Source of the DNA: Amazonocrinis nigriterrae CENA67
GTDB lineage: Bacteria; Cyanobacteriota; Cyanobacteriia; Cyanobacteriales; Nostocaceae
Direction of reading: 5' to 3'
Assembly: GCF_016056305.1 (NCBI RefSeq)
Contig: NZ_JAECZC010000111.1
Location: forward strand, 30,127-94,126
Length of the DNA stretch: 64,000 nt
The notes beneath the pieces were generated by a model that saw nothing but the letters and a program-made list of their open reading frames with translations, was not told the DNA's origin and searched no databases. How positions within the stretch are numbered: position 1 is the stretch's first letter; every line of letters starts with the position of its first letter. The translations under genes and the position numbers were made by a program. Shown one piece after another: positions 4,692 through 58,785 of the stretch.

Positions 4692-4787
4692 GAATAATTA
4701 ATGTTGTGTAATTAGCGCATCGTCATATTTATATGTTAGTAGTTAGTATCAACATAGGTAAACCCTATTCTCTGCAAAACTAAGAGG

Positions 4788-5228: not shown

Positions 5229-5304
5229 CTGATAACTCCGTTAGTTAATTTCTGCTAGTTTATTTTAGGCGATCGCGGTCACTAGGTTGATAACAGGCTT
5301 CACA

Positions 5305-5858: not shown

Positions 5859-5873
5859 AGGCTGACTTAATCT

Positions 5874-22027: not shown

Positions 22028-22029
22028 TA

Positions 22030-40809: not shown

Positions 40810-40851
40810 ATCCTTAGCTTATAATCACTTCGATTTACTCATCAAATGAAG

Positions 40852-41501: not shown

Positions 41502-42586
41502 CGTGCCGGTCTTCCGCCTAAGAGGTTCTTTTGCCAAAGCTCGCCCAAGCTATAATCCAATAGCCATTCTTCCAACTCATGCTGATTCAACTTGTGAAGG
41601 TAAGAACTTCCTTCATCGCGGTCTACAATAATCACATCATTTGCTTCAAATTCGTTAAGCAATTCAACGGACTGAGTAGAAACAATCACTTGTTTAGAGA
41701 CAGTACGGATTAACGAAGCCAGTACCTTAATAGCGTAAGGGTGAAGTCCCAGTTCTGGCTCATCAACGATAATTGTTTCTGTTTGGAGATCTTCAGGTTG
41801 CAGAAAAACCGTTGCTAGACATATAAAGCGCAGCGTGCCATCTGAAAGCAAGTGTGCCTTAAACGGAATATCCTGACCCCGCTCGAACCATTCCAACTCA
41901 ATAACCTCCTTGTTCTGTGGAGCAGGACGCAGGTTAAAATCCCCAAAAAACGGAGCAATCAGTCGAATAGTTTTGACGATTCTTTGATATGACGCTGGGT
42001 AGCTGTTACGCAATAGATACAGGAAGGATGCAAGGTTACGTGCATCAGGACGCAGATAAGCATTGTCATTGATACCCTGCGGCTGTTTGATGTAGGCGCT
42101 GTCACTTGTGTCATGGAAATGGTAAACTCGCCACTGTTGCATGGCAGGCAAAACGTATTCATCAATTCCCGTTCTTGTGCCGATGAAAGCCTTTGTCTCG
42201 AAATGACCCCTACCGATTTCACGTTCACCACCCATGTTCCACCAGAACGATTCCCTAGCGAACATCAAGCGATTATCCTGGGTCGGTTCAAGGGTAGCGA
42301 AGTATCCATTATTGCCGAAGTATAATTCAAACTCTAATTGTTCCGTTGTTTTCCGCCCAAAATGTAATAACGCATCAGGACTTCCTTGGCGACTCACAAA
42401 AACTTGTAGGTTCTTCTCTAACAACTGCCCAACCATGCGGAAGAAGCCGATAAAATTGGATTTACCCGCCCCATTAGCACTGATTAAAATGTTCACTCTG
42501 GAGAGTTTAAGGTCACAATTGGCGATAGACTTGAAGCCTTTTAAAACTATTCTCGACAGTTGTTTATCACGGTTTATCTCCGTCAT
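41498..42586 (-). CDS. AAA_21-type ATPase partner of DUF4276
   Basis: The ATPase (362 residues from the ATG at 42586) has the ABC/RecF-like layout: IVLKGFKSIANCDLKL, Walker A SANGAGKSNF (about residues 36-45), a DGTLRFICLATVFL signature-like helix, and Walker B TIIVDEPELGLHP followed by VSTQS. I reject the earlier TTG start at 42601 because it lies inside the GGGAG ribosome site of the ATG. Downstream DUF4276 is translationally coupled by ATGA overlap. ATPase-DUF4276 pairs are found in defence islands and are likely OLD- or PARIS-like in principle (inference). The ATPase itself seems intact. Confidence 0.83.
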   Translation of the reverse strand: MTEINRDKQLSRIVLKGFKSIANCDLKLSRVNILISANGAGKSNFIGFFRMVGQLLEKNLQVFVSRQGSPDALLHFGRKTTEQLEFELYFGNNGYFATLEPTQDNRLMFARESFWWNMGGEREIGRGHFETKAFIGTRTGIDEYVLPAMQQWRVYHFHDTSDSAYIKQPQGINDNAYLRPDARNLASFLYLLRNSYPASYQRIVKTIRLIAPFFGDFNLRPAPQNKEVIELEWFERGQDIPFKAHLLSDGTLRFICLATVFLQPEDLQTETIIVDEPELGLHPYAIKVLASLIRTVSKQVIVSTQSVELLNEFEANDVIIVDRDEGSSYLHKLNQHELEEWLLDYSLGELWQKNLLGGRPAR

Positions 42587-42651
42587 AGAACAGTCTCCCA
42601 ATATAAAGACTTTTTATCTACTGGTTTCATTCTGTTTCAATTTTCTAGCTT

Positions 42652-44912: not shown

Positions 44913-45205
44913 ACGTGAGTTCGACAGATTTTAAAGATCCCTCTCCAAACCTCTCCCCTGAAAGGAGGAGCCACTGCGTTGGGGAGCCACCGCCGGGGTG
45001 AGGCAGTGCGTTGGGCGGCTTTGCCGACAGCCGCGCAACTGCCGAAAGGGTTTCCCGACTTGATGCGTCTGGCGTCCGGCTTTGCCGACAGCCGCGCATG
45101 TAGCGTCAGAGGCTTCAAAACCTTAATTTTTCATGCTTGATCAAGAATTTCAAAGCCCCTCTCCGCGTCGGAGAGGGGTTGGGGAGAGGTTCATCGAACT
45201 CACGT
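44913..45205. mobile_element. 293-bp MITE with 7-bp target duplication
   Basis: Perfect 12-bp terminal inverted repeats ACGTGAGTTCGA (44913-44924) and TCGAACTCACGT (45194-45205) are flanked by direct TATTCTG copies at 44906-44912 and 45206-45212. CTCTCC-type blocks continue the inverted symmetry inward. The centre holds a GGAGCCACTGCGTTGGGGAG block and two copies of CGGCTTTGCCGACAGCCGCG, probably a second repeat inserted inside. No transposase is encoded, so it must have been moved by an enzyme made elsewhere. The small open frames inside are not genes. Confidence 0.88.
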
Positions 45206-45418
45206 TATTCTGGTTATAGTTTTACTAGCCCACGAAAAATTTTTTAGGTTTTTGCATAAATTCTGAATTTATCCTCGATAGGTATCTTGAGGATGAAACT
45301 AGCTTAGCTCTGGTTAAATCTAGGGCTAAGCTTAGCCTAAAATCCTGTCACAGGATTAATTTTTTGTAGTGATTTTCAATTGTTATCTAGCGTTAAATTT
45401 ATCAAGCCTATTAATTTT

Positions 45419-45589
45419 ATGAGTACTATGGCATCAGTAAAAGTCGAATTCATGAATGTTCAGTCTCAAACTGCTGAGGAGACATTAGGTGTTGATGAGT
45501 TTTACCTAGTTGGTTCGTTGATATCTCGTCGGTGCATTGGTAGAAGACCGAAACACAAAGACAATTTTGACAACTGCGATATGAATTAG
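45419..45589 (+). pseudogene. Degenerate gene remnant
   Basis: An ATG-started frame gives MSTMASVKVEFMNVQSQTAE and TLGVDEFYLVG, then loses sense. After about 19 extra bases (TCGTTGATATCTCGTCGGT) a different frame continues as ALVEDRNTKTILTTAI before a stop. Joining LVG to ALVEDRNTK gives a natural-looking protein, so a short insertion probably broke the gene. The family is not recognised. A terminator follows at 45654. Confidence 0.5.
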
Positions 45590-45652
45590 ATGCTGTCTGT
45601 TAGGAAATTCTGCTCACTTATTCCCATTCACCATACTCAATTCCCTATTCCC

Positions 45653-45688
45653 AAAAACTCCACTCTCAAAGATGGAGTTTTTTTATTG
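45653..45688 (+). terminator. Terminator downstream of the remnant gene
   Basis: AAAACTCCA and TGGAGTTTT form a 9-bp stem with a loop of about 10 bases, followed by TTTTATTG. It shows that the remnant upstream was once a transcribed unit, or still is. Confidence 0.82.
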
Positions 45689-45791
45689 TAAGTATCGTGT
45701 TTACAGCTACAGTTCTGTCCTAGAAATGTGAGTAACAATGATTCTAAATAACTCGAAATGCAGCCCTTGCTGTAGATGATCCTGCTGTTTC

Positions 45792-47483
45792 ATGAAACCC
45801 CGAATCATTGTTTGTGGCTTAGGACGTACTGGATATAAAATCTTTCGTTTGTTGAGACAGCAGGGAGCGTTAGTTGTTGGCATTCATCACCAACCTATCC
45901 CTGGCGAAACAGCAAAAGATGTGATTGTTGGTGATTTACATGCAGCTGCTACACTGACAGCAGCGTCAATTCAGGAGGCAGACACTTTAGTGATTGCTAG
46001 CTGTGATGATGCTGTAAATTTATCGATTATGATGCAAGCGCGGGTGCTAAATCCCCAAATTCGGATTATTAACCGTCTCTATAATACGAATTTGAGCGAT
46101 CGCTTGGATCAAACTTTGCCTGACCATTTAAGTATGAGTGTTGTAGGTTTAGCAGCACCAGTATTTACATTTGTGGCCCTGGGAAACCAAGCCATTGGGC
46201 AAATCAAGTTATTTCAGCAGACTTGGCCTATCAAAGAAGAATATATACATGAAAACCACCCTTGGCTAGGTCGTAAGCTGAGTGATTTGTGGGATGACAC
46301 TTCGCAGATGATGATTTATTACTTACCTGTGCAAGGTGAGATAGATTTAATCTCTGCCGTGCTGTCTGGAGAAGAGTTAAAATTAGGCGATCGCTTAGTC
46401 ATTGCTACTCAACCTCGCATCCGTCCTCCCCGCCGTTCACTGGTGAGAAAACTGCTGAAAGTTCTTACCAGCCTGAGCAAGTTTCAACAACATGCTCAAT
46501 CGGTGGTGTCGATGGCAATTGTATTACTGGCAATCATTTTGCTGTCTACACTCACCTATACTGCTACTAAGTTAAACATTTCTTTTATCGATGCCTTATA
46601 TTTTGCTGTAGGTATGATCACCGGAGCCGGCGGTAATGACAAAGTAGTAGAAAATGCTCCCGACAGTATTAAATTATTTACTATTGTGATCATGCTGATT
46701 GGGGCAGCAGTGATTGGTATTTGGTACGCCATGCTTACCGATTTTGTCTTAGGCAGTCGCTTCAAACAATTTTGGGACGCAGCACGCATTCCGCAGCGAA
46801 ATCATTACATCGTCTGTGGCTTGAGTGGCATCGGCATCACAATTATCCAACAACTCCATGCCAGCGGACATGAAATAGTAGTAATTGAAACAGACTCTAA
46901 TAACAGATTTGTCAACTCCACCAGAGGATTGGGTATTCCAGTAATTCAAGGTGATGCCAGTTTCCGCACAATACTCAAAGCCAGCAATATCAACTCAGCT
47001 GCTGCGGTGCTTGCTGTCACCAACAACGATGCTACTAACTTAGAGATTGCCTTGAAGGCTAAAGGCTTAACACCAAGTATTCCGGTGATTGTGCATTATG
47101 CCGACCCTGATTTTGCTAGAATGGCTCAACAGTTATTTGATTTCGAGGCTGTACTCAGTCCTGCTGAACTTGCAGCACCAGCTTTCGCCGCTGCTGCACT
47201 TGGAGGCAAAATCCTCGGCAATGGCATTACAGCGGATAATCTGTGGGTAGCTTTTGCGACAGAAATTACACCATTACATCCCTTCTGCGGCCACTGGGTG
47301 AAAGATGTAGCTATATTGGCTGAATGTGTGCCTTTATACTTAGAAAATAATTACAAAACCTTTCATGGCTGGGAATTGCTAGAAACTATCCTCAGCGATG
47401 GCGATATTTTATACTTAACTATGTCTGCAACCAAATTATATCAATTGTGGCACGACGAGCGATCGCAGGCGATCGTTAGTTGA
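45792..47483 (+). CDS. RCK-type ion channel with two TrkA-N domains
   Basis: The 563-residue protein has an N-terminal NAD-binding TrkA-N domain (IIVCGLGRTGYKIFRLL, residues 4-20), a TrkA-C-like region (about 150-210), two transmembrane helices (about 238-262 and 295-322) flanking a pore loop, and a second TrkA-N domain (HYIVCGLSGIGITIIQQL, from about 335). The pore loop reads YFAVGMITGAGGND where potassium channels have TVGYGD, so selectivity is uncertain. Cyanobacterial and CASTOR/POLLUX-like channels show similar departures. It would sit in the cytoplasmic or thylakoid membrane and respond to nucleotides through its RCK domains (inference). It is monocistronic. Confidence 0.85.
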   Translation: MKPRIIVCGLGRTGYKIFRLLRQQGALVVGIHHQPIPGETAKDVIVGDLHAAATLTAASIQEADTLVIASCDDAVNLSIMMQARVLNPQIRIINRLYNTNLSDRLDQTLPDHLSMSVVGLAAPVFTFVALGNQAIGQIKLFQQTWPIKEEYIHENHPWLGRKLSDLWDDTSQMMIYYLPVQGEIDLISAVLSGEELKLGDRLVIATQPRIRPPRRSLVRKLLKVLTSLSKFQQHAQSVVSMAIVLLAIILLSTLTYTATKLNISFIDALYFAVGMITGAGGNDKVVENAPDSIKLFTIVIMLIGAAVIGIWYAMLTDFVLGSRFKQFWDAARIPQRNHYIVCGLSGIGITIIQQLHASGHEIVVIETDSNNRFVNSTRGLGIPVIQGDASFRTILKASNINSAAAVLAVTNNDATNLEIALKAKGLTPSIPVIVHYADPDFARMAQQLFDFEAVLSPAELAAPAFAAAALGGKILGNGITADNLWVAFATEITPLHPFCGHWVKDVAILAECVPLYLENNYKTFHGWELLETILSDGDILYLTMSATKLYQLWHDERSQAIVS

Positions 47484-47504
47484 CGAAAGCTTGCTGTTAT
47501 TTGT

Positions 47505-50183
47505 TTATGATACTATTTCCTCATAATCCTCAAGCAGCAATACATAATCTTCCATCAACCTAGCTAAATGAAGAGGCCAAGGCAGCTTGAGTGGTTCATC
47601 ATAGTGGAGTGCTAGATGACGTAATTCATGTGTTACCGCTGCCCAAAGTATTGGATCATCATTCGGTTGAATACAAGCTACAGTCAATTCAACTAAACCT
47701 GGATTCCAATAATAAACATCAGGAGATGCATCATAAATTTTTTCTTCCTTTGTTTTTCGACTTATGCTTGTCCAAGACGAGGCTTTAGAAAGATTACGGT
47801 TTAACTGAAACTGCTTAGGCGTATTGTAGGTGCTAGCAAAGACGCGCTCACCCATTTTAAAAATGCCTTCGCTAAAGCCATGGCCATCTCCGTCTTTTTG
47901 GGCATACCACTCTGGTGTTTCGTGATTTTGACTATCACGCACTCGCACAATCCGAAGCTTATTAGAATGAAAGCGACTAATGTCTAAAGGCTTTTCTTCA
48001 CCAAAAGCTATTTTGTCAAGTGTGATGTTTCCATTTTGTAACCATTTCCAAACACTTCTGATGTTCTGTGCGTGGCAGAGCAAGAGTGTATCACCAAGTG
48101 AGAGAACATCTTTAAGTTTTGGCTTGATGAATCTCATTACAGCTTCTTCTTGACGTTGGTAATTTTCTACTTCGCCTTGACCAATTTTCAGAAGTGCTTC
48201 TCGATAGGGTAACCAAGTGTTTCCTAAGCCAGGAGCGATCGCTTTAATTTCTGTAGTATCTGAGGACATGTGAACCATTACTGGCACACGTTGAATACTA
48301 CCATCACTGCTGGTTGAGGAATTGTGTTTGATCATCCATAAAGCAACATAATTCAGTTTTTCTGGTAAAGCTTTTTGGGTAACTTGTGGAGGCGTTGCGA
48401 TCATTTGCTGACTACTGTGGGGTATCGTAATTACTATCTTTGGTGGTTGTGCTTGTACACCTAACTGACGCAGTAAATCTAAAAAACCATTTTTGGCACG
48501 ATGCGACAAATTTCCAGTGTTATCAGTGCTAATAAACTGCGTCCAGCTTTCCTTCACAGCAAATCCCATACGAAGCGCATCTTTTGGATCAGCGTTTTCA
48601 GCAAACTTATCTGGGCCATCTAGTTCAATAAATGCAACTGTTACACAAGAAGCTTGCGGAACCTTTGCTTCTACTTCTTCACATCGTTGAGTAATGGCTT
48701 CACGACGTTGCTCTATTTTGTTTGTGATACTTTTATCAAGCTGTAATACATCCCCTAACTCCCCCAAATTATATTCTTGGATATTTAAAGTTAGATTCAC
48801 ATTAGGAAACTTATAAGGAAATGATTCCAACTCTGAAATTCCTAAGAATTGACGTAAAGTATGAATCAAAGTATCGCGTGTTGATGAGCGTTGATACCAG
48901 ATTTCTACTGTTAATTGCTCACCAATGGTTTTGCTGATAGCATGACAACGTTGATTTTGAAATTCCTCCTCGGAATTTAGTTTTTTAGCTGTTGTATCTG
49001 GTAAAAAGGGATTTATAGGAATTTTTGGACTATACTTAACTCGTTCGGGAGCTGCCACAAATTCCCACTCTGATTGAAGTAATTCGGCAATTTGTTCGGC
49101 AAGTTCACGACGGTCAACTGGCCCGAACCCAGGCTCAACTTCATGAGCAGGCTTTATACCATTGCGATAAACTAGTGCAGCATTGGGGTGATCATTCAGA
49201 TTAAGTGCTGATGCCGGATCATCTACAATATTTTGTGGTGTAGGAAAAGGATGCTGGCGATTTAGCCTATCAAGTAAAGCTGTTAGATTACTCCCCCATG
49301 TCCAGCCGTATTGTGAATTACCTTGCTCTGTTTGCGAAGAGGGCAAACGTCCCCATCCTATCGGTGCGACTTGAAAACTTTGTGAGTTATGCAGCCCCTC
49401 AAGCCAAGGCACACTTGTAAGTAAATAGACACTAGTTTCTTTATTCCTCGGTAAATAAGTAATTGGCTTACTTTCCCAACGCCGTAAGCTGATGTCAGCG
49501 TGAATAACAGGAAAGTTTTGAAAAGGTACAGTCTGTACTGTAAAAGTAATTACAACAGACCAGTACCAGCCCTCATATTCCAGTGGTTTCCAAGAAACAA
49601 TTTCAGCTCCCTTGATACCTGGAGGTAAAGGAGCGCGGCGAAAATGTAAAGTTTCTGAACCGAATCTTAACGATACATCTGGACTGCTGAACTGAGCAGC
49701 CAGGATATAAGGCAGTAAGATAAATTGATCGTCATTACCTAAGTTTGCTGTGCCATTATCCCCAACAGTCCACTTAGCTGTATTGACTTGTGTGGGTCGC
49801 CAATAAAGTTGAGCTGGCTGTAGTTGCTCTAGCACTTGACGTTTTCTTGCATCCGATGCTCTGGAAAATTGAGTCTGTACCCAAGCGTTGAGAATCAAAT
49901 ACAATGCCTGTGGATTAATTGCTGTCTCACTGTACAGCCAAGGGGTTTCACCGCTTCTACCAGCATTGGCAGCAATGTAAATTAAGTCTGGCACCAAAGC
50001 CCGCATTGCCTTATTCAGTAAGCTGATAGGGATAGTAGTTCTATCAAGTGGACGACCTGAAAGCTCAGATTGTAACTGCAATAGCTCAGACTTACCTGGA
50101 AGATTGAGAATTTGAAAATTATGTTGCAGCTTGATACCCTCTTTCAGACGAAAGGAAAGAGTGCGTAATTCGTCGTAGCTCAT
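47505..50183 (-). CDS. pPIWI_RE-family prokaryotic Argonaute-like protein
   Basis: This 892-residue protein matches pPIWI_RE in length, order and neighbours. It has an N-terminal module (about 1-400, with a beta-rich segment around YEGWYWSVVITFTVQ), a MID-like region (about 430-520), and a C-terminal RNase H/PIWI-like domain beginning near VTVAFIELDGPDKF. The C-terminal helices include the ILWAAVTHELRHLALHYDEP block, which may supply the Arg/Glu pair naming the family. Family theory is guide-directed targeting, possibly of RNA-DNA hybrids, with the partner helicase and nuclease. Residue-level catalysis is not proved here. Its ATG overlaps the helicase stop by one base (TGATG), so it is the last gene of a coupled operon. 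Confidence 0.85.
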   Translation of the reverse strand: MSYDELRTLSFRLKEGIKLQHNFQILNLPGKSELLQLQSELSGRPLDRTTIPISLLNKAMRALVPDLIYIAANAGRSGETPWLYSETAINPQALYLILNAWVQTQFSRASDARKRQVLEQLQPAQLYWRPTQVNTAKWTVGDNGTANLGNDDQFILLPYILAAQFSSPDVSLRFGSETLHFRRAPLPPGIKGAEIVSWKPLEYEGWYWSVVITFTVQTVPFQNFPVIHADISLRRWESKPITYLPRNKETSVYLLTSVPWLEGLHNSQSFQVAPIGWGRLPSSQTEQGNSQYGWTWGSNLTALLDRLNRQHPFPTPQNIVDDPASALNLNDHPNAALVYRNGIKPAHEVEPGFGPVDRRELAEQIAELLQSEWEFVAAPERVKYSPKIPINPFLPDTTAKKLNSEEEFQNQRCHAISKTIGEQLTVEIWYQRSSTRDTLIHTLRQFLGISELESFPYKFPNVNLTLNIQEYNLGELGDVLQLDKSITNKIEQRREAITQRCEEVEAKVPQASCVTVAFIELDGPDKFAENADPKDALRMGFAVKESWTQFISTDNTGNLSHRAKNGFLDLLRQLGVQAQPPKIVITIPHSSQQMIATPPQVTQKALPEKLNYVALWMIKHNSSTSSDGSIQRVPVMVHMSSDTTEIKAIAPGLGNTWLPYREALLKIGQGEVENYQRQEEAVMRFIKPKLKDVLSLGDTLLLCHAQNIRSVWKWLQNGNITLDKIAFGEEKPLDISRFHSNKLRIVRVRDSQNHETPEWYAQKDGDGHGFSEGIFKMGERVFASTYNTPKQFQLNRNLSKASSWTSISRKTKEEKIYDASPDVYYWNPGLVELTVACIQPNDDPILWAAVTHELRHLALHYDEPLKLPWPLHLARLMEDYVLLLEDYEEIVS

Positions 50184-53100
50184 CAGTCAGCGATGCCTCC
50201 GATATTTTCAATAGCTTGATAAAACGGCCCGTATAGTGCTTGCACTAATGCCTGATCTCTCTGAGTAATTTTGCCGTTAGAGGCAGGCAAAAAATAAGGG
50301 CGCAAAACTTGTTTAATACTGACTAAAAGACTGGTTAATGGTACTTCCCCTAGCTCATCTTGGTAGGCAGTACGACGAGCAAAGGCTGCATCACAGAAAA
50401 CCACACGCGCAGGGCTACCTCCACGTACCAGCCGTCCAATAACTTGCCAAATGGAAACTAGCTGATTCCAAGTCACAGCTTTACGCTCGTCATTACCCAA
50501 TGTGCTGTAAATCATTGGTAGTCGCAAAAGACGACGCCATTCGCTGTAAGCAGCGTTACGAAAGGCTTTTCCTACATTGTCAAGTGTCAGCAAATTATTT
50601 TCACACTTACTAGTTAGCCAGGAAACGTCATTGTACTTTTCTACAGCCCAGCGATTGATGGAGTGGATGGCATAACTAATATCATCAGGACGTGGAAGCG
50701 GACGCACGAGAAAGTAAGCCGCTCCAAATGCTGCTTTCCCAGCTTCGTTAAGAATGTTGTGTCCGCGTTCAATTGCCATCAAAGGAGCTATTAAAATCCA
50801 TGCTCCAGTAGTGGCAAATTTACTTACTAGTCCACGTTGGATGCTTCGACCGCTACTACTGCGCCATTCGCTTTCAAATTCGTCATCATCACAAACCAAA
50901 CGCAGTATTTGATCTCGCCATTCAGGTCGAATGTATTCTAAATGCTCTTGTGTCAGCTTTGCTTCTTCATAACTACCAACAAGTAAAAGAATCCGCTGAC
51001 GGTCTTCTGGTAATGCATCACGTTCTACCTCAAGTAAGCTGGGGCCTCCTAAACCACTTGGTTGTGTCAACTTATTTAGAAGTTCTTTGAGGGCGACAAC
51101 TCTTTGGTGGCCAGACTTACCAGAGACAGTGATTGGCTGTTGACCTTGATCATCGTAATAAAAAGCTTCAAATCGAAAATCACTTTTTTCAATTGCTTGT
51201 AGCTCTTCTAGGGGCGATCGCAATATTCCCGCTACTGGCACTTGTACATGATATCCTGGCGCATCCCCCGCCCAACTTGTACCAGAAAGCAACAAAACGT
51301 TTGGCCCCGCCATGCCATCACTAGCAAAGAGTTCGTGTAAATGCAACAAAAGCCAACGACCAATACCCAAGCACTTAAAAAAGCACAAGTTTCCGGGTTC
51401 GTTGTCATTGTAACTAACATACTGAAATGCCAATATATTACCCATTGATGCTACCGGCATAACTGGCTCATAGTCCCTCGGTGGGTTATGAACCAAAAGT
51501 GAACTCTCTCCTTCAAGTTTGAAGGTTTCCTCTACTAGCTTCCAATCCCGTAACATTCGGTTGAGACGTTCTTGAACCGCCGCCACAAGCAAAGCAAACT
51601 TCAGTTGTATTACCGCATCTTTTAGTTCTTCCTCTGTTAGTGCCACAGCAGGAGATTTGTTTTGCACGATCCAGCCATGCAAACGCTGTAATACTAATTC
51701 TTCATTGGTAACAGTGATGAGTTGACGCGTGAATTCTGAGAGTTGATGATTGCTCCAGTCACCAAGTGGGTCGTTGAGGTATTCCTCAAACAAGTCCATC
51801 AGTCTGCGATAATCTGGATTAGATTGGCGCTTGTTAAATTGTGTACCACTTAGCTTGACTGCTAATTTGTCCAAAATCAACCAATCTGTAAAGGATTCTC
51901 CGTTTTTCTTCCATGTCTTCAGGGCAGTTTCTGCTTTCTGATTTAGCATTAACGAGTAAATCCGACTAATAGCTGTTTGAGTAGTATCATGTGCTAGCTC
52001 CCACCTATCAACATCTGGATCTGCGAGTTGACCCCGACCCTCTAAATTTAACTGCCGCACCACAGGTTGCTGGACTTGGCTAAACCAACCATTTCCTCCA
52101 GGCCCAAATAATTTTTGATTCGGGCTAAAAATGTTATCAAGTTGAACTTGTACTTGGTCAACTTCATCTACGATGATCAAGTCGCTACGACGAGAAACTA
52201 ACTCAATAAAACGAATACTCTCAGTGTTAATTTGTCGAGCGACGCGAGTGTATACCAAGCTGGCTGGTGTAGCAATCCATATTTGCGCTTTCACTAAATC
52301 TCTCTGTGCTTGGTGAAATGGACAAGCACTGTAGAGGGGACAAGCATGGGTTTTACTTGTCTGTGCTTGTTCTTCTTCCTCTGCATTATCCAGACGTAAC
52401 AAAGATAAACAAGGCTGCTTACCCGATACAAAGGGTTGCGTCACATCCCGACGTAATTCGCTTAATGGACAGGCTGCACTCAGCCATTGAAAGCCTTGGT
52501 GTTCTTGAGCAAACGGCTCTAGGGGATGTTCAGCAGTCCATGCTCGATGCAAGCGGTTTGTATGGCGTTCTCGGTTTGACACCCCCAGAATAGGAGCAAC
52601 TTTAATACCTAATCTCTCAAATAATTTTGACCGCTCCAATGCTCCAATCACATCTCCCACAACTAGAGTTACATGAAGTTTTTGTTGAGCAGCCCTAACT
52701 GCTAGCACATCCATGAGAGTGGATTTGCCAGACGATACCATGCCAATTAAATGCATTAATCCATTGATAGTGAGACTGTCTGCATCAGTGAGAGTGATAC
52801 TGTTATTACCAAACAGTTCTAAGCTGACTCTTGATATCCGATATTCCCATGTTTGAGAGTTTGGGGATTCTTCTTGAGATACCACTAGCTCTGGATGTAA
52901 TACAGAATCCATCCAACGCGCAGTTTCAACAAGTTCTTGCTTGGAAACTGTGATTTGATTTCTTTGAGTTCTTCCTGACAAGTCGTGACTTGTAGGTGGG
53001 TTGAGTATTAACTCTGGGGGAATTTCAACTGTAGCTTGATATTTGCCATCAGTACACTCGTATAAGCCTGCTTCTGTAATCCACCTCACAGGATCTTGAT

Positions 53101-53536
53101 GATGCTGTAATGGTAGATTCAAGGTATTTAAATAAATGTGGTAACGATTAGAAGCAATGCTGACAGAACGCTGGGAGAATTGGTTAAACTCTGCATCTAT
53201 TTCGTAACCTCGAAGACGTTCATCTACCAAACAATAATGCTCTAGGCCATTCCTCCAATTGGAGTCGCTTCTAAACTGGGTAAGAATATGGCGTGCGTTA
53301 CCCAACATTCGCCATTGTTGTTCACTCCAATTGTATGATTCAGCAATTGGAAAAGGGTATCCAGTTAGTAGTACCCACAGAGAATCTGCTCTTGCTGTTG
53401 GTATTAACTGTGATAAAAGGTAGAGACCTAATTCTAGGTCACAAAATTTTGCAAACGTTAAATGTGCTTCAATTTCTAATCGATGATTCCGCAAAGTACG
53501 TCTTAACTCTCGCCGCCAAGAATTTGTATCCCGCAT
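50183..53536 (-). CDS. DinG/XPD-type helicase of the pPIWI_RE system
   Basis: The 1117-residue SF2 helicase has Walker A GMVSSGKST (Lys271) and Walker B IIVDEVD (Asp457, Glu458), which differs slightly from canonical DEAH. Four cysteines lie between them at 356, 376, 399 and 405 (AACPLS, KQPCLS, HACPLYSACPF), the arrangement of the iron-sulfur cluster of XPD/DinG helicases. The C-terminal half contains NVLLLSGTSWAG, QRILLLVGSYEEAK and a QVIGRLVRGG motif VI. It should unwind DNA or RNA-DNA hybrids for the pPIWI protein. The stop overlaps the pPIWI start, and the gene begins three bases after the nuclease gene ends. Confidence 0.87.
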   Translation of the reverse strand: MRDTNSWRRELRRTLRNHRLEIEAHLTFAKFCDLELGLYLLSQLIPTARADSLWVLLTGYPFPIAESYNWSEQQWRMLGNARHILTQFRSDSNWRNGLEHYCLVDERLRGYEIDAEFNQFSQRSVSIASNRYHIYLNTLNLPLQHHQDPVRWITEAGLYECTDGKYQATVEIPPELILNPPTSHDLSGRTQRNQITVSKQELVETARWMDSVLHPELVVSQEESPNSQTWEYRISRVSLELFGNNSITLTDADSLTINGLMHLIGMVSSGKSTLMDVLAVRAAQQKLHVTLVVGDVIGALERSKLFERLGIKVAPILGVSNRERHTNRLHRAWTAEHPLEPFAQEHQGFQWLSAACPLSELRRDVTQPFVSGKQPCLSLLRLDNAEEEEQAQTSKTHACPLYSACPFHQAQRDLVKAQIWIATPASLVYTRVARQINTESIRFIELVSRRSDLIIVDEVDQVQVQLDNIFSPNQKLFGPGGNGWFSQVQQPVVRQLNLEGRGQLADPDVDRWELAHDTTQTAISRIYSLMLNQKAETALKTWKKNGESFTDWLILDKLAVKLSGTQFNKRQSNPDYRRLMDLFEEYLNDPLGDWSNHQLSEFTRQLITVTNEELVLQRLHGWIVQNKSPAVALTEEELKDAVIQLKFALLVAAVQERLNRMLRDWKLVEETFKLEGESSLLVHNPPRDYEPVMPVASMGNILAFQYVSYNDNEPGNLCFFKCLGIGRWLLLHLHELFASDGMAGPNVLLLSGTSWAGDAPGYHVQVPVAGILRSPLEELQAIEKSDFRFEAFYYDDQGQQPITVSGKSGHQRVVALKELLNKLTQPSGLGGPSLLEVERDALPEDRQRILLLVGSYEEAKLTQEHLEYIRPEWRDQILRLVCDDDEFESEWRSSSGRSIQRGLVSKFATTGAWILIAPLMAIERGHNILNEAGKAAFGAAYFLVRPLPRPDDISYAIHSINRWAVEKYNDVSWLTSKCENNLLTLDNVGKAFRNAAYSEWRRLLRLPMIYSTLGNDERKAVTWNQLVSIWQVIGRLVRGGSPARVVFCDAAFARRTAYQDELGEVPLTSLLVSIKQVLRPYFLPASNGKITQRDQALVQALYGPFYQAIENIGGIAD

Positions 53537-53539
53537 TTA

Positions 53540-54661
53540 CTAGCACCTTTGCAACTTGTTTCGTACATCTTTGATGAATGCGCTTTCAAACTTAGCCTTA
53601 ATCTGTTTGGGTAGCGGACAATGATTACAAAAAGCTCGTAGATAATCCGGGCGTTGTTCACTGCGATCATCTGGAAAGACAAAGTAGGCTTTTATCCAAG
53701 GTGGTTTGCTGGGAATCAAAGGATTTTGTTGCCTGACTTTGTGTGCTAACAGAAAGGGATTAGCCCAGTCTTTGACATCAATTGCCCATACTTCATTATC
53801 TGGAAAAACAATTCGTAAATCATAGGCATCAAAATCAGGCCATAAGTTGACTTGAAGCCTTGATTTACCTAAATTTTCTAGTTTTTCTGCCAATCTTAAC
53901 TCTGCACAACCAGGTGCAGCAATAAAGCGCCGTAATCCTCGTTTGAGCCAAATAACTTGCTGTTTTTGAGAAATCTGACGACCTGACTTGCTAACATTTT
54001 TGGCACGGCAACGATCTTCCGCACAGATCAATTCTCCTTGGACAGTGCGAAGCATCAAATTTCCACAGTGAGCGCAACAGTGAAAATAACCATCGACAGC
54101 ATAGGATTCCGGTGCAGGTTCGTAAGCTGCTTGAATTTGTTCTTCTAGCTTTTCTAACAATGGTTCAGTACAAATTTGTAGTAACTCAAACGCTGTTAGT
54201 AGAAGTTGACTAATCAACAAACGACGGAACTGAACATAAGAATCGGGAGTGTCAGCCAATCTGCAAACACTCATTACGTTTAGCAATAACTGTTTTTGGG
54301 TGAGTTCCGCTTCTATATCCGAACTTGCGATCGCCCACTCTTCACAAATAGCAGTTGGTATTTGACCATCAAGCAGCTTATCTGCTACGCCTAAATCTTC
54401 TTGAGACAAATCCAAATGCCACTCTGTTAAAGGCCGACGACACCAACAAAGCAACTCAGGGACTCCTTGTGGTGGTTTCCTGCCTTGACGTAAGCAATTC
54501 AAAACCAGTCTATCTAGACCACGTTGGAGTTCTTTCGGATAAGGAAGAGTGGGCGCTTTACCGTTTTTGAGGCTTTCTGCAAGTTTTACGATACCACTAG
54601 CAACTAAGTGCAGCGTTAGTTCATCTGGTGAAAGTTGTGGTTTAGTGAAGTTAACAGTCAT
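53540..54661 (-). CDS. Zinc-ribbon plus PD-(D/E)XK nuclease of the pPIWI_RE system
   Basis: The 373-residue protein is the first gene of the operon. A helical N-terminal region (about 1-185) leads to a zinc ribbon (Cys195, Cys196, Cys199, Cys213, Cys218; FHCCAHCG and LICAEDRC). The C-terminal restriction-endonuclease fold has Glu254 (CAELRLAEK), Asp281 (YDLRIVF) and Asp295-x-Lys297 (AIDVKDW), a complete PD-(D/E)XK core. This is the third element of predicted pPIWI_RE loci and presumably cuts the targeted DNA. An optimal ribosome site (GGAGTGAGG) precedes the ATG. The promoter lies in the divergent gap with the XRE gene. Confidence 0.87.
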   Translation of the reverse strand: MTVNFTKPQLSPDELTLHLVASGIVKLAESLKNGKAPTLPYPKELQRGLDRLVLNCLRQGRKPPQGVPELLCWCRRPLTEWHLDLSQEDLGVADKLLDGQIPTAICEEWAIASSDIEAELTQKQLLLNVMSVCRLADTPDSYVQFRRLLISQLLLTAFELLQICTEPLLEKLEEQIQAAYEPAPESYAVDGYFHCCAHCGNLMLRTVQGELICAEDRCRAKNVSKSGRQISQKQQVIWLKRGLRRFIAAPGCAELRLAEKLENLGKSRLQVNLWPDFDAYDLRIVFPDNEVWAIDVKDWANPFLLAHKVRQQNPLIPSKPPWIKAYFVFPDDRSEQRPDYLRAFCNHCPLPKQIKAKFESAFIKDVRNKLQRC

Positions 54662-54726
54662 TACCTCACTCCAGATTTAGATTAAATTGTTGTTCACTTG
54701 AGTTACTCCTACAAAATCTCAAAACC

Positions 54727-54751
54727 TAAATTGAGAGTACAAATCTCAATT
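54727..54751. promoter_or_regulatory. AT-rich palindrome upstream of the pPIWI operon
   Basis: AAATTGAGA (54727-54735) and TCTCAATTT (54743-54751) are perfect 9-bp inverted arms around GTACAAA, 66-90 bases upstream of the nuclease start. It could be an operator or a 5'-leader hairpin. On the plus strand it is followed by TTT, but no plus-strand gene ends here, so it is not a terminator. Confidence 0.55.
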
Positions 54752-54841
54752 TTTTGAATTTAGTTTTATGTGTAGTGTTATGTATTAATTACAAGATTAG
54801 GTAGCAGTCTAACCCTTTATTTACCTGATGTCAATTAAAAT

Positions 54842-54880
54842 TGTTTGCAAAAAAATATGTTTGTAATACAAACTGTTTGT
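54842..54880. promoter_or_regulatory. Cluster of GTTTGT half-sites: probable XRE operator
   Basis: GTTTGTA-A-TACAAAC (54859-54873) is a perfect inverted repeat with a one-base centre. Its right half also forms a second one, ACAAAC-T-GTTTGT (54868-54880), and a further TGTTTGC lies at 54842. The half-sites have alternating orientation in the gap between the divergent pPIWI operon and XRE gene. A TTGACA at 54910-54915 lies between this cluster and the XRE start. This fits binding by an XRE repressor to two or more adjacent sites. Confidence 0.6.
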
Positions 54881-54945
54881 CTCATTAACATCATTACAGT
54901 ATTGTAGGATTGACAAGATATGCAGCAAATTCTCTTACTGTATAA

Positions 54946-55269
54946 ATGCCTGACTATCAACGGTTCTATACACAAGTAGGTCGCCGTATCCGCGAAGCAA
55001 GAGAAAAACGGGGATTGAGTCAAGAGGCACTAGCCTCACTTGTCTCTCTTACCCGTACCTCTGTGACAAATATTGAAAAAGGTAGACAGAAGTTTCTAGC
55101 TCACACCCTTGTGGACTTAGCTTTTGCATTGCGAGTTGAGCCAGCTACCTTACTTCCAGAGAGCAAAATTACATCCGAAGAAGAACTTGATGAACTCTTG
55201 AAAGATCGACCTCCCGAGGAACAGCACTGGATCAAAGCTGTCTTTGATTCTGTTGAAGAGAGAGAGTGA
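54946..55269 (+). CDS. XRE-family transcriptional regulator
   Basis: The 107-residue protein has an N-terminal HTH_3 domain (about residues 6-64): RRIREAREKRGLSQEALASL, VSLTRTSVTNIEKGRQ, LVDLAFALRVEPATLL. The acidic C-terminal tail (EEELDELLKDRPPEEQHW) may contact the metalloprotease encoded next. The ImmA/IrrE-like gene starts one base after its stop, so the two form an operon. By analogy with ImmR-ImmA and DdrO-IrrE pairs, the regulator would repress its own and perhaps the divergent pPIWI promoter until cleaved (inference). Confidence 0.88.
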   Translation: MPDYQRFYTQVGRRIREAREKRGLSQEALASLVSLTRTSVTNIEKGRQKFLAHTLVDLAFALRVEPATLLPESKITSEEELDELLKDRPPEEQHWIKAVFDSVEERE

Positions 55270-55270
55270 T

Positions 55271-55813
55271 ATGGCAGTTCGCCGGAAGTACATCTGTAAG
55301 GTCGTAGAACGCCTGATTAAGGATCAATGTATTCAAGCAGCACCAATTTTTGTTGAAGAATTGGCGCGTGCTTTGGGTGTGGAAGTGCAATATCAACCAG
55401 CTGATGACAAGCTATCTGGATTTCTAATTCGAGATTTTAAAAACCATTGTGCTGTTATTGGCGTTAACAGTTCTCATCATAAAAATAGGCAAAGATTTAC
55501 AATTGCCCATGAACTTGGACATTTTCTATTACACGAAGGAGAAAAAGTACATGTTGACCGTATTGACTATAGCTTTCAAGTCAAGCTTCGTAACGAAGAT
55601 TCAAGCAAAGGCATCAATTTAGAAGAAAAAGAAGCAAATTATTTTGCGGCAGAACTTCTTATGCCAGCAAGTTTTCTCAAAAAGGATCTTACTAATATGG
55701 AAATGCTTGATTTGCTAGATGAAGAAGGATTGAAGAAACTGGCAGATTCTTACAGAGTAAGCACTCAGGCGCTTACTTTCCGCTTAGCCTACTTAGGATA
55801 TATCCAGCTATAA
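55271..55813 (+). CDS. ImmA/IrrE-family zinc metalloprotease
   Basis: The protein (180 residues from ATG 55271) has the zinc motif HELGH within RFTIAHELGHFLLHEGE (His80, Glu81, His84) and the third-ligand region EKEANYFAAELLMP. A winged-helix-like C-terminus with LADSYRVSTQALTFRLAYLG follows. This is the DUF955/ImmA-IrrE class that cleaves XRE repressors in response to stress or invader signals. A TTG start 27 bases earlier is inside the XRE gene and less likely. Clear functional coupling to the XRE gene is inferred from the one-base gap. Confidence 0.9.
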   Translation: MAVRRKYICKVVERLIKDQCIQAAPIFVEELARALGVEVQYQPADDKLSGFLIRDFKNHCAVIGVNSSHHKNRQRFTIAHELGHFLLHEGEKVHVDRIDYSFQVKLRNEDSSKGINLEEKEANYFAAELLMPASFLKKDLTNMEMLDLLDEEGLKKLADSYRVSTQALTFRLAYLGYIQL

Positions 55814-55872
55814 GCAAAAATTCAACTAAGTTGAGTTTCAACTCAACGTAGGTTTTTCAACAATCTCTAAAT

Positions 55873-56745
55873 TTAAAATGATTCCATATATTCAATACAC
55901 TTTTGCATTTGCTGGCGCATAGTTTCAGCATCAGCATGAAACCTCCATCCATGACCTGGTAGCACCCATTCAAATGAGTAATTAGCCAATTGATGCATTG
56001 ATTGAGTCTGTTGTGGCCAAGAATACCAGCAGACATTGTGGAATGCTATCAGCTGATGCAAACTTTCTGACCAAGCAAGATGGTCGCCAGTGAAGAGAAA
56101 CTTATTCTTGTACAGTAAAACCGTGTGCCCTTTGGTATGTCCGGGAACAGGAATAATTAGCAAATCTGGAGTTAAAGCAAATTCTTCTACACCAGTTAGC
56201 TGTATTTCCACATTCCGAGTACTTCCAGAAATATCATCAGCGTGGAGAATCCGCTGACAATGAAAATGTTCGGCAAACTTTTGATGATCTGCCACATCAT
56301 CTCGGTGGGTTAAATACATATAACGTATTCCACCCATCTGTTCTATATGCTTAACTAAAGGAGGCGTAAATCGGGGAGAATCAACTAAGATATTACCTTC
56401 CGCAAGTTGAATCAAATAACTAGCAGCAGCGTAAGATTTTTCCGAATGATAGCCACAGTGATAAATATTTTCATCTAGTAAAATCGGAAAAGTTTGTTGA
56501 GCATCTTTGATATCGTGTGGTTTTTCAACTGTGCCAATGGAACTAGTAGGGCAAGCTAAAAGCGCTTGGAGTGCTGCTAATCTTTCTGTCTCATTCTCTG
56601 GTTGGTGAAATACTGCCGACTGTTCATCAACCCGATAAAAAACTTCGGGAGTCATCCAGCGACATGTATCACAATCAATACAAGTAGTATCTACATAAAA
56701 ATCGCCATTGACATTTTGGGGGCGACGAAGATTTAAATGAGCCAT
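55873..56745 (-). CDS. MBL-fold hydrolase with N-terminal ferredoxin-like domain
   Basis: The protein (290 residues from ATG 56745, preceded by AGAGG) has an N-terminal 4Fe-4S ferredoxin-like segment: CIDCDTC plus a later CPTSSIG cysteine (residues about 23-70). A metallo-beta-lactamase domain follows, with THRDDVADH as the HxHxDH-type motif (first-position variation), PVPGHTKGH, FTGDHLAW and VLPGHGW. Such ferredoxin-MBL proteins are frequent in cyanobacteria; the substrate is unknown (glyoxalase II-like and flavodiiron-like proteins share the fold). It lacks a flavodoxin domain. A longer start 36 bases upstream is possible but lacks a ribosome site. Confidence 0.85.
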   Translation of the reverse strand: MAHLNLRRPQNVNGDFYVDTTCIDCDTCRWMTPEVFYRVDEQSAVFHQPENETERLAALQALLACPTSSIGTVEKPHDIKDAQQTFPILLDENIYHCGYHSEKSYAAASYLIQLAEGNILVDSPRFTPPLVKHIEQMGGIRYMYLTHRDDVADHQKFAEHFHCQRILHADDISGSTRNVEIQLTGVEEFALTPDLLIIPVPGHTKGHTVLLYKNKFLFTGDHLAWSESLHQLIAFHNVCWYSWPQQTQSMHQLANYSFEWVLPGHGWRFHADAETMRQQMQKCIEYMESF

Positions 56746-56821
56746 GTTAAACCTCTTTCTGGCTGCTTGCTGGGCGGGCAATAAACCCTATATCACCACG
56801 CTAGCAAAAACAACCCCCCAC

Positions 56822-56917
56822 TAGACCTCTTGCAAAAGTCTCAATTCTTAACTCTGCCTTTGTGCCTTTGTGCCTTAGTGGTTAAGAAATTGACTGTTGA
56901 ACCACCAAGACACTAAG
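56822..56917. repeat. Host palindromic repeat (left part)
   Basis: AGACCTCTTGCAAAAGTC (56824-56841; also near 21341 and inverted at 30599) is followed by TTTGTGCCTTAGTGGTT and then AACCACCAAGACACTAAG, an inverse copy. Its continuation, ACACAAAG, is found only after the MITE (57084). The joined version ACCACCAAAGACACTAAGACACAAAG occurs uninterrupted near 34446-34471. Confidence 0.75.
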
Positions 56918-57078
56918 AGGATGTTTGGAAAGTAGAAAAGTATACTAAGAACCCCTCTCCAAACCTCTCCCCCACAGGGAGAGAGGCTTTGAAAGCCCCA
57001 TTCCCTCGTAGGGAAGGGGGGTAGGGGGGTTAGGTTTTTTAGGCTTTGATGTTAGCAATAATACTTTTCAAACAACCT
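56918..57078. mobile_element. 161-bp MITE inserted in a palindromic repeat
   Basis: Ends AGGATGTTTGGAAAG (56918-56932) and CTTTTCAAACAACCT (57064-57078) are inverted with 13 of 15 matches. CTAAG is duplicated on both sides (56913-56917 and 57079-57083). The interior holds CCCCTCTCCAAACCTCTCCC and a G-rich inverse, but no gene. Removing the element and one CTAAG restores GACACTAAGACACAAAG, the intact repeat seen near 34455. Confidence 0.88.
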
Positions 57079-57097
57079 CTAAGACACAAAGGGCTGA

Positions 57098-58219
57098 TTA
57101 ACCCCCAAAACCAGGAATCAAACGCTTGAGGGCACGTCCAGCAACATCACCATAGCGCAGTTCGCCACACAGAATCTTACCCATGATTTGGGCACCAGAG
57201 GGGCGCTTGACACCAACTTTGTAGCCAATACCAGGAAAGCGATAGAATGCTTGAGCTAATTTTTGCGCCCAAGCCATATCAGCACCCCATTGTTCATTCA
57301 TGGCTTCGGTGTATTGTTCTAAAGCATTTATGTCACCAGAAAGGGCCTGATTAATAGCTCCTGCTGCCAGTAAGCCACTGAAAATTGAGGGACGGATGCC
57401 TTCTGCTGTCATGGGATCAACTACACAAGCAGCTTCCCCAGCTAAAACAGCATTTTGAGTATGCAGCTTTTGATTGCCATCCCAAATACAAAGGGGATGA
57501 CCATATTGTTTGCTAATTGTCATGTCTAAATTAAACGATTTGGCATACTCATCCAAAATTTTCTTAAAGTCTTGGCGTTCACCACCAATGAATGTACCAA
57601 CACCAATTGAATAGCCGTCTGCTTTGGGGAAGTTCCAGATGTAGCCGTTTTTCACTAAGCCAAACTCGAAGTGAATTGTGGATTTGTTTTCCACATTGGC
57701 AGCAACTTCTGCCTCTAAAGCTCCTGCTAGGCGGCGTTTACGTTCTTTGAAGCCTAACCATTTTGCCATTGGGCCTTTCGCACCGTCAGCCGCTATTAAG
57801 TAGCGACTTGTAAATGCACCATTGGCTGTGTTCACTTGCCAATGATCAGTTTTAAACTCAATTCCTGTAACTTCTGTATTGTCCCGTAGTTCCGCTCCTT
57901 GTTTCTGGGCTTGCTGCACTAGGAAATGGTCAAAAATATCTCGCCGCACCATCCAGACTGGTTCTTTAGTTTCTATTTTTGCTTCTACAGGGTCTTCCAA
58001 TTTCCAGGTGAAGCGCAGAGAGTCTGCCTTGGAAGAAATAGCTGGGCTGAAGTCAAAGTCAAACCATTGCGCGATCGCAGGTGATACACCACCCCCACAT
58101 GGTTTATATCTTGGTAGGGATTCTTTTTCTAAAATTAATACTGAACGACCCTTTTTAGCTAGGTGATATGCTGCTGTTCCACCAGCTGGGCCTGCGCCGA
58201 CAATGATAGTATCGTACAT
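57098..58219 (-). CDS. Geranylgeranyl-reductase-family FAD oxidoreductase
   Basis: This 373-residue flavoprotein has the dinucleotide motif IIVGAGPAGGTAAYHLA (residues 5-21), the family block LPRYKPCGGGVS, YLIAADGAKGPMAKWLG in the middle and GEAACVVDPMTAEGI for FAD binding. The family includes ChlP, which reduces the geranylgeranyl side chain of chlorophyll, and related isoprenoid reductases. This one is shorter than ChlP as I know it, so a different isoprenoid substrate is possible. It lies directly downstream of a MITE on the plus-strand map and is probably monocistronic. Confidence 0.85.
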   Translation of the reverse strand: MYDTIIVGAGPAGGTAAYHLAKKGRSVLILEKESLPRYKPCGGGVSPAIAQWFDFDFSPAISSKADSLRFTWKLEDPVEAKIETKEPVWMVRRDIFDHFLVQQAQKQGAELRDNTEVTGIEFKTDHWQVNTANGAFTSRYLIAADGAKGPMAKWLGFKERKRRLAGALEAEVAANVENKSTIHFEFGLVKNGYIWNFPKADGYSIGVGTFIGGERQDFKKILDEYAKSFNLDMTISKQYGHPLCIWDGNQKLHTQNAVLAGEAACVVDPMTAEGIRPSIFSGLLAAGAINQALSGDINALEQYTEAMNEQWGADMAWAQKLAQAFYRFPGIGYKVGVKRPSGAQIMGKILCGELRYGDVAGRALKRLIPGFGG

Positions 58220-58785
58220 ATTGCTGAATTTTTGCTCCTCAAATAGTTAATTCTTTAGTTTATCTTTGGAATCTAAATAAAAACGGTTTGACTAGAGTTT
58301 AATTGATTCTCAAAATTGCTAAATATTCATTTTATGTAAATGTTTTTACATATATAGTAATTTTAGTAGGAGGTAAGTATGCCATAAATCCATACGGTTC
58401 AGTCAAGGCTAGGATTCTTGAACAAAGTAATCTTTTTAACGATTCTCTCAATTAATATGTAGTTATATCTCTTCCCCAAAAATGACTTACTTTTTCATAT
58501 TTTTGATCTCGTTTAACGGTTATTAAAATACAATTTATTTCTACAGTAATTGCAAAAAATTTAATAATTATTCAGGTGATTTTATAAATTTTTAGTAAAC
58601 ATCTAAGTACGGATATTCAGCGATCGCGCTTCAAGGTATCCCTAGTTAATTTTTCTTGCAGTGTCAAACGAAATATGAAGGCTAAAGAATTGATACATCA
58701 TTCTTCAACCTTCATACTTGACACTACTTACCCTTGGGTAATGCTAAAAGTGAGCGTTAAGCCGCCCCAAGGGCGTCTACATGCT
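58220..58785. other. Gene-free region with fold-back repeat
   Basis: About 565 AT-rich bases. TATGAAGG and CCTTCATA with inner AAGAAT/ATTCTT arms form an imperfect hairpin at 58674-58716, lying past the end of frr. GCCGCCCCAAGGGCG near 58761 is another short inverted motif. No RNA gene was recognised and the frr terminator is not clear. Confidence 0.5.

What the first reader, a model, noticed from the sequence alone, without database searches (positions are those of the whole stretch)
47505..54661. Complete three-gene pPIWI_RE locus: candidate RNA-guided restriction system
Three coupled genes (3-base gap, then a one-base TGATG overlap) encode a zinc-ribbon PD-(D/E)XK nuclease with full Glu254/Asp281/Asp295-Lys297 core, a DinG/XPD-like helicase with four cysteines at 356/376/399/405 between its Walker motifs, and a pPIWI_RE Argonaute-like protein. 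All appear intact. Such loci were predicted from comparative genomics to act on RNA-DNA hybrids in conflicts with invaders. To my knowledge the guide, target and mechanism remain largely undescribed.
Basis: partly seen in the sequence, partly recalled or inferred. Interest (0 to 1): 0.9.

Follow-up and report, generated by a model that had tools for sequence, protein, structure and literature searches.

The report
Damage-switched five-gene Argonaute-like defence locus
A cyanobacterium carries a known but little-tested kind of three-gene Argonaute-like defence operon, and beside it, facing the other way, a repressor-protease gene pair of a type known to switch on immune genes when DNA is damaged, which suggests how such operons stay silent until needed.

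Summary
In detail: window 47505-54661 (minus strand) is an intact pPIWI_RE triad (REase, DinG-like helicase, PIWI protein). This kind was described in 2013 and one PIWI-RE protein was characterised in 2022, so the triad itself is not new.

Two things change the reading. (1) The PIWI protein lacks an acidic residue at both RNase H positions I could place (K619, H704), so it is probably a non-cutting guide/hybrid binder; the nuclease residues are in the REase protein. (2) The locus has five genes. A divergent pair (54946-55813) matches CapH and CapP, the repressor and ssDNA-activated protease of CBASS-type operons. In a same-genus genome all five genes are absent together (26 bp in place of 8,400). 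A second pPIWI_RE locus in this genome has an analogous but different HTH-M78 pair. In that clade 18 of 18 countable loci have one, against 3 of 66 other family loci; 0 of 87 have one downstream; 0 of 75 genome-collection loci have one.

Best reading: a normally silent restriction-like system derepressed by DNA damage. Regulation is inferred, not tested. New variant of a known kind.

The parts
47505..50183 (-). pPIWI_RE protein, 892 aa (X, MID, RNase H/PIWI domains); probably catalytically inactive
   Evidence: Pfam PF13111 7.8e-66, PF18157 3e-19, PF13032 4.6e-58; PADLOC PprPIWI 1.3e-143; AF2 model pLDDT 88.2, Argonaute fold; K619/H704 at the predicted catalytic strand ends
50183..53536 (-). 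DinG/XPD-like helicase, 1117 aa, pPIWI_RE_Z domain and four-cysteine Fe-S-type motif
   Evidence: PF18155 2.2e-37; PprDinG 1.3e-227; invariant Walker A, DExD and Cys356/376/399/405 in 10 sequences
53540..54661 (-). Y domain - zinc ribbon - PD-(D/E)XK nuclease, 373 aa
   Evidence: PF18156 1.9e-35, PF18154 4.7e-32; E254, D281, D295, K297 and 4 Cys invariant in 21 sequences; AF2 model pLDDT 90.2
54662..54945 (.). Shared divergent intergenic region: perfect palindrome GTTTGTAATACAAAC 54859-54873; inverted ATGTYAWT half-sites 54828-54835 and 54884-54891; promoter-like hexamers 54834-54806 (minus strand)
   Evidence: Palindrome matched in 92 of 1000 shuffles; half-site chosen post hoc and overlaps a -35-like hexamer
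54946..55269 (+). CapH-like Xre-family HTH repressor, 107 aa
   Evidence: PADLOC capH 1.8e-13 over 3-101 of 103; Pfam HTH_31 3.7e-12
55271..55813 (+). CapP-like M78/IrrE metalloprotease, 180 aa from ATG 55271 (the ORF list starts it at TTG 55244)
   Evidence: PF06114 1.9e-23; PADLOC capP 2.1e-34; HELGH motif; PDB CapP 7t5t 6e-5; start
47482..55881 (.). Five-gene unit present/absent as a block relative to same-genus genome G001
   Evidence: G001 matches the window up to 47481 and again from 55882, with 26 bp between

Best explanation
An inducible five-gene pPIWI_RE defence locus. The divergent CapH-like repressor binds the shared intergenic region and keeps the REase-helicase-PIWI operon, and itself, low. 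When DNA damage or phage replication makes single-stranded DNA, the CapP-like M78 protease is activated, cleaves CapH and derepresses the operon. The nuclease-dead PIWI protein then holds a guide or an RNA-DNA hybrid (R-loop), the Fe-S DinG-like helicase opens or translocates the DNA, and the zinc-ribbon PD-(D/E)XK protein cuts it. Shown here: gene content, domains, presence or absence of catalytic residues, joint presence/absence of all five genes, conserved regulator position in a related clade. Inferred: repression, ssDNA sensing, guide binding, DNA cleavage, antiviral role.
For: Triad domains and Argonaute fold. CapH/CapP profile matches and CapP as best PDB sequence hit. All five genes absent together in G001. 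Divergent HTH-M78 pair at the same place in the genome's second locus L094 and in 18 of 18 countable loci of that clade, against 3 of 66 other family loci and 0 of 87 downstream (HTH in all 18). Pfam whole-genome check: of 98 M78 matches in 55 genomes, 14 lie within 10 kb of a pPIWI_RE match (coordinates, my count). Palindrome 9-11 bp before the HTH start in 7 of 8 loci of L094's subclade. Homologues of the window pair face multiubiquitin-E2-E1/JAB, E1-DUF6527-XamI and HNH-caspase/helicase operons. CapH+CapP as ssDNA-triggered derepressor: PMC13373217, passages.
Against: Most pPIWI_RE loci lack the pair (63 of 66 non-B1 family loci, 75 of 75 genome-collection loci), including the close relative L142. 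The window's palindrome is weak (92 of 1000 shuffles) and its half-sites overlap a -35-like hexamer. The B1 pair does not match the capP profile. Nothing was measured. The dead-PIWI claim rests on a model and on spacing, not on a direct alignment with an active member.
Confidence: 0.5

Rival explanations
1. Burroughs model without the switch: a constitutive R-loop-directed restriction triad in which the PIWI module senses RNA-DNA hybrids; the adjacent HTH-M78 genes are an unrelated ImmR/ImmA-like or toxin-antitoxin passenger.
For: The triad occurs without the pair in most loci (63 of 66, and 75 of 75). R-loop model proposed in PMC3702460 (passages). L037's M78 neighbour looks like a HigBA-type toxin-antitoxin.
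Against: 18 of 18 in clade B1 and 0 of 87 downstream; five-gene block absent as one in G001; homologous pairs face other defence-type operons.
Confidence: 0.3
2. The PIWI protein itself is an active guided nuclease, like PsPIWI-RE, and the REase and helicase assist it.
For: PsPIWI-RE cuts ssDNA with RNA guides (PMC10991935, passages).
Against: PsPIWI-RE needs D525 and D610, 85 apart; here residues 619 and 704 at the predicted strand ends, also 85 apart, are Lys and His, and 610-622 has no acid. The nearest acid, D642 beyond strand 2, is D in 37 of 150. The comparison is by predicted strands and spacing only.
Confidence: 0.1
3. A DNA-repair or replication-stress system rather than defence: damage-induced helicase and nuclease acting on the cell's own R-loops or stalled forks.
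For: A CapHP-type pair responds to DNA damage; deletion of PsPIWI-RE raised ciprofloxacin sensitivity and affected cell division (passages).
Against: Patchy presence (87 of 217 family genomes), plasmid copies (25 plasmid records with a helicase relative), presence/absence in one genus, and several decayed copies look like a mobile conflict system.
Confidence: 0.1

Closest known systems
pPIWI_RE three-gene island (Burroughs, Iyer and Aravind 2013, PMC3702460); PADLOC PprRE/PprDinG/PprPIWI
   Same: Gene order, coupling, all Pfam domains, REase motif, helicase cysteines, conserved R747 and E832
   Different: Divergent CapH/CapP-type pair; the passages and the section part I read mention HTH domains fused to some REase proteins and a metallopeptidase fused to some PIWI proteins, and no separate HTH-protease pair
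PsPIWI-RE of Pseudomonas stutzeri (PMC10991935)
   Same: PIWI-RE protein encoded overlapping a dinG gene
   Different: PsPIWI-RE has catalytic D525 and D610; the window protein has Lys and His at the positions of equal spacing
CapH+CapP controller of CBASS, Bub and other operons (passages in PMC13373217)
   Same: Xre-type HTH plus M78 protease, divergent before a defence-type operon, profile matches to capH and capP
   Different: Controls (by position) a pPIWI_RE operon, a pairing I found in no listed paper; activity not tested
Catalytically inactive prokaryotic Argonautes with separate effectors (RsAgo, SPARTA)
   Same: MID-PIWI fold; RsAgo with guide RNA and target DNA is the best Foldseek hit, SPARTA Ago chains are among the VIA-align rows
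   Different: Own N-terminal X domain; effector is a helicase plus PD-(D/E)XK protein. That RsAgo and SPARTA Agos are inactive is recalled, from no call

Membership tests
pPIWI_RE three-gene system | PIWI protein with X, MID and RNase H pPIWI_RE domains | tested here: met
   PF13111, PF18157, PF13032 over gathering scores
pPIWI_RE three-gene system | Signature Arg and Glu of the family | tested here: met
   R747 in 129 and E832 in 134 of 150 homologues, both present in the window; that these two are the named R and E is my mapping by position
pPIWI_RE three-gene system | Upstream DinG-like helicase with Z domain and cysteine motif, and REase with Y domain and zinc ribbon, in the order REase-helicase-PIWI | tested here: met
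Active PIWI-RE nuclease (PsPIWI-RE type) | Two catalytic aspartates on RNase H strands 1 and 4 | tested here: not met
   K619 and H704 at the predicted strand ends; no acid in 610-622. By model and spacing, no direct alignment with PsPIWI-RE
CapH/CapP controller (window pair) | Profile matches of both proteins | tested here: met
   capH 1.8e-13, capP 2.1e-34, each the best PADLOC hit of its protein; CapP 7t5t best PDB hit, 6e-5. The CapH-like protein's PDB hits are other HTH proteins (C.AhdI 3.3e-8)
CapH/CapP controller (window pair) | HExxH protease motif and position divergent before a defence operon | tested here: met
   AHELGH; geometry
CapH/CapP controller (window pair) | ssDNA-activated cleavage of the repressor and derepression | not testable with these tools
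   needs purified proteins or reporters
CapH/CapP controller (second-locus pair, L094) | Match to the capP profile | tested here: not met
   only RmrA profiles at 1e-3, though PF06114 7.8e-16 and HTH_3 2.8e-8 match; it may work alike but is not filed as CapHP
PD-(D/E)XK nuclease | Fold match to solved members | tested here: inconclusive
   no Foldseek hit at E 0.001 or better; many of the listed weaker hits are PD-(D/E)XK enzymes, others are not; Pfam PF18154 and the invariant E/D/D-x-K are met

The most novel reading that the evidence does not exclude
pPIWI_RE systems in Nostocaceae-type cyanobacteria are DNA-damage-induced, probably self-harming immune operons. HTH-M78 protease switches were captured independently at least three times (window, clade B1, L066), so that the two pPIWI_RE loci of one cell each have a private switch, and the PIWI protein of the window's locus acts as a non-cutting guide or hybrid sensor for a helicase-nuclease pair.
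Probability: 0.45. Interest if true: 0.7.

Novelty: new variant of a known kind. Interest (0 to 1): 0.57.

Why it matters
In what I read, the trigger of pPIWI_RE loci is only predicted (R-loops). A CapHP-type switch gives a concrete, testable trigger (ssDNA or DNA damage) and a handle: removing capH should give a derepressed system to assay, and would explain a silent locus failing in a phage challenge. It would also extend this regulator class to a PIWI-based system.

Tried and rejected
PIWI active site: I first placed the strand-1 site at residue 640 (D in 7 of 150). The model showed 631-640 to be the second strand, so I moved it to the end of 610-619. The window lacks an acid at both readings; D642 lies just beyond strand 2.

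A general association of M78 with pPIWI_RE loci is rejected: 3 of 66 non-B1 family loci, 0 of 75 collection loci. L037 is probably a HigBA-like toxin-antitoxin neighbour and is not counted among the independent captures.

How the counts were made: 109 family loci examined (window and L034-L141), 88 with a REase piece over 700 nt and a PIWI match, 84 of these with 1.6 kb upstream; 87 of 88 with 1.6 kb downstream. The B1 list was drawn up by me from the score bands, the layouts and the helicase tree. In the tree B1 is a clade of 19 rows, 16 labelled M78+; the rest are L095 and L104 (contig ends before the REase gene) and L133 (REase remnant; the pair is there). The tree is a FastTree with long branches and needs 6 label changes, some due to cut contigs. 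My M78 model was seeded with window, B1, L037, L066 and L076 sequences, so unlike M78 types may be missed; the Pfam search of 55 genomes is the independent check.

Operators: the window palindrome alone is not significant (92 of 1000 shuffles). The half-site ATGTYAWT was chosen after seeing WIN, L259 and L260; 7 sites in five intergenic regions (L260 cut to its last 300 bases) against 0.49 expected, at most 3 in 500 shuffles; L261 has none, L262 one. It contains a TTGACA-like hexamer, so it may be promoter. The B1 palindrome is in 7 of 8 loci of L094's subclade but, as an exact pattern, in only 1 of 11 of the other (L107, elsewhere in the region); the regions of the first are 73-87% identical, so descent contributes.

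Relatives of the window pair: 21 of 208 genomes matched CapP. I fetched six; four hold a CapH+CapP pair; L263 gave no hit and L264 is a 436-aa protein without CapH.

Led nowhere: empty-site test of the second locus (G001 matches L094 only to 3587, apart from an 86-base match at 14767-14852); tRNA; Rfam at 45000-58500; direct repeats at the unit's ends (longest 6 bases); helicase profile against PDB (only RecA P-loop matches); L094 CapP-like protein against PDB (none); NCBIfam for the triad (none informative).

Literature: searches listed no paper that by title or abstract start links an HTH-M78 pair with pPIWI_RE. One search was badly aimed ('irre' matches 'irregular'). I read the passages of PMC7641849: they are about 'Piwi-related', not PIWI-RE. 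Most subscription papers and bioRxiv are not held.
Full report
What is there. Three coupled minus-strand genes: PIWI 47505-50183, helicase 50183-53536, REase 53540-54661. Pfam places pPIWI_RE_X, MID_pPIWI_RE and RNaseH_pPIWI_RE on the 892-aa protein, pPIWI_RE_Z on the 1117-aa helicase, and pPIWI_RE_Y plus pPIWI_RE_REase on the 373-aa protein, all over gathering scores. PADLOC calls them PprPIWI, PprDinG and PprRE.

Fold. The PIWI model (pLDDT 88.2, pTM 0.89) matches Argonautes: Foldseek best is RsAgo with guide RNA and target DNA, E 1.1e-15; the best VIA-align row is TtAgo, Z 15.9, rmsd 6.6 over 512 residues. The REase model (pLDDT 90.2) has no Foldseek hit at E 0.001 or better; many of the weaker ones are PD-(D/E)XK enzymes.

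The PIWI protein probably does not cut. Burroughs et al. say that catalytic residues survive only in a subset of the family (PMC3702460: outline, abstract, section 6 part 1 and passages read). Here the predicted first strand (610-619) ends at K619 with no Asp/Glu in 610-622, and the fourth (698-704) ends at H704. Among 150 homologues position 704 is D in 51, E in 42, H in 41. PsPIWI-RE needs D525 and D610, 85 apart (PMC10991935, passages); 619 and 704 are also 85 apart. This rests on predicted strands and spacing, not on a direct alignment; D642 lies just beyond strand 2.

The locus is larger. Upstream and divergent lie an Xre-type HTH gene (54946-55269) and an M78 protease gene (55271-55813 from its ATG, 1-base gap). 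They match PADLOC capH (1.8e-13) and capP (2.1e-34), and the best solved structure by sequence for the protease is CapP 7t5t (6e-5). CapH+CapP is described as a pair whose protease is activated by ssDNA and cleaves the repressor, freeing adjacent immune operons such as CBASS and Bub (PMC13373217, passages; the original paper is not held).

Is the pair part of the unit? In same-genus genome G001 the flanking genes are 92-93% identical, and window positions 47481 and 55882 have 26 bp between them there instead of 8,400, so all five genes are present or absent together; this cannot tell gain from loss. The genome has a second, distant pPIWI_RE locus (L094) whose REase gene also faces an HTH and an M78 gene, of another subfamily (no capP match at 1e-3). 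Among family loci with REase, PIWI and 1.6 kb upstream, 18 of 18 of this second clade (B1) have a divergent M78 gene, against 3 of 66 others (window, L037, L066); 0 of 87 have one downstream of PIWI; 0 of 75 qualifying loci from the genome collection (Cyanobacteria, Chloroflexota, Actinomycetota; at least six repeat family loci) have one. Pfam's own M78 model finds 98 matches in 55 genomes; by their coordinates 14 lie within 10 kb of a pPIWI_RE match, where uniform placement would give well under one (my arithmetic; most of the 14 are one clade, so not independent). In the B1 subclade of L094 a GTnTCA-N4-TGAnAC palindrome lies 9-11 bp before the HTH start in 7 of 8 loci; shuffles reach at most 1 of 8, though these regions are 73-87% identical. 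The other B1 subclade has the exact pattern in 1 of 11.

A portable controller. Homologues of the window's own pair (58% to 37% CapP identity) stand divergently before a multiubiquitin/E2/E1-JAB operon (L259), an E1/DUF6527/XamI set (L260) and HNH/caspase-helicase genes (L261; caspase-helicase also in L262). The window shows such a module on a pPIWI_RE operon.

Against this reading. Most pPIWI_RE loci lack the pair, including L142, the closest complete triad found (64% helicase identity; no M78). Operator evidence at the window is weak: the palindrome 54859-54873 is equalled in 92 of 1000 shuffles, and the inverted half-sites were picked post hoc and overlap a -35-like hexamer. Nothing has been measured.

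Spread. 87 of 217 family genomes match PF13032; 25 plasmid records hold a helicase relative. The helicase tree puts the window with Hormoscilla and an uncultured Calothrix, then Oscillatoria, Chloroflexota and Nostoc-type loci, consistent with horizontal transfer.

Verdict. The triad is a known kind. The CapHP-type switch and the probably inactive PIWI protein make a new variant with a testable trigger.

Noticed in passing
L094 3974-12745 (G000 contig C91): Second, distant pPIWI_RE triad in the same genome with its own divergent HTH-M78 pair.
   Followed up: yes
window 41010-42601: AAA_21 ATPase gene plus DUF4276 gene; in G001 the window interval 40812-42631 is replaced by about 0.6 kb, a second presence/absence block near this locus. 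A similar-looking ATPase gene lies downstream of the CapHP pair in L261.
   Followed up: partly
window 21392-23328: Adjacent genes matching PADLOC AbiLii (2e-24) and AbiLi (3.5e-85).
   Followed up: no
window 3786-7736: DNA methyltransferase-like gene (3786-4691) and a PADLOC Orf5/HEC-06-type gene (5874-7736).
   Followed up: no
L109 3965-9139: One open frame matches both the helicase and the PIWI model: a helicase-PIWI fusion.
   Followed up: no
L106, L111, L119, L120, L133: Decayed B1 loci that keep HTH and M78 matches (the HTH match shortened in L106, L119, L120, L133) while triad genes are truncated or missing.
   Followed up: no
L038 12278-13069; similar genes in L039, L043, L051, L054, L062, L074, L077: A sigma-70-type factor gene (L038 tested; the others look alike) lies divergent, about 0.6-0.8 kb upstream of the REase gene in one pPIWI_RE clade; shared site or function unclear.
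   Followed up: partly
L130, L131, L132, L135: Related pPIWI_RE proteins with Asp at alignment positions 640 and 704 but without the R747/E832 pair (Ser/Asn); possibly a distinct group.
   Followed up: no
L142 8977-10001: About 1 kb separates the REase and helicase genes in Hormoscilla sp. GUM202, unlike the touching genes of the window.
   Followed up: no
L076 4517-8362; also L078, L081: A 1281-aa protein with an HTH_upst_double_PIN domain (L076 tested) is encoded about 150 bp upstream of the REase gene, same strand.
   Followed up: no
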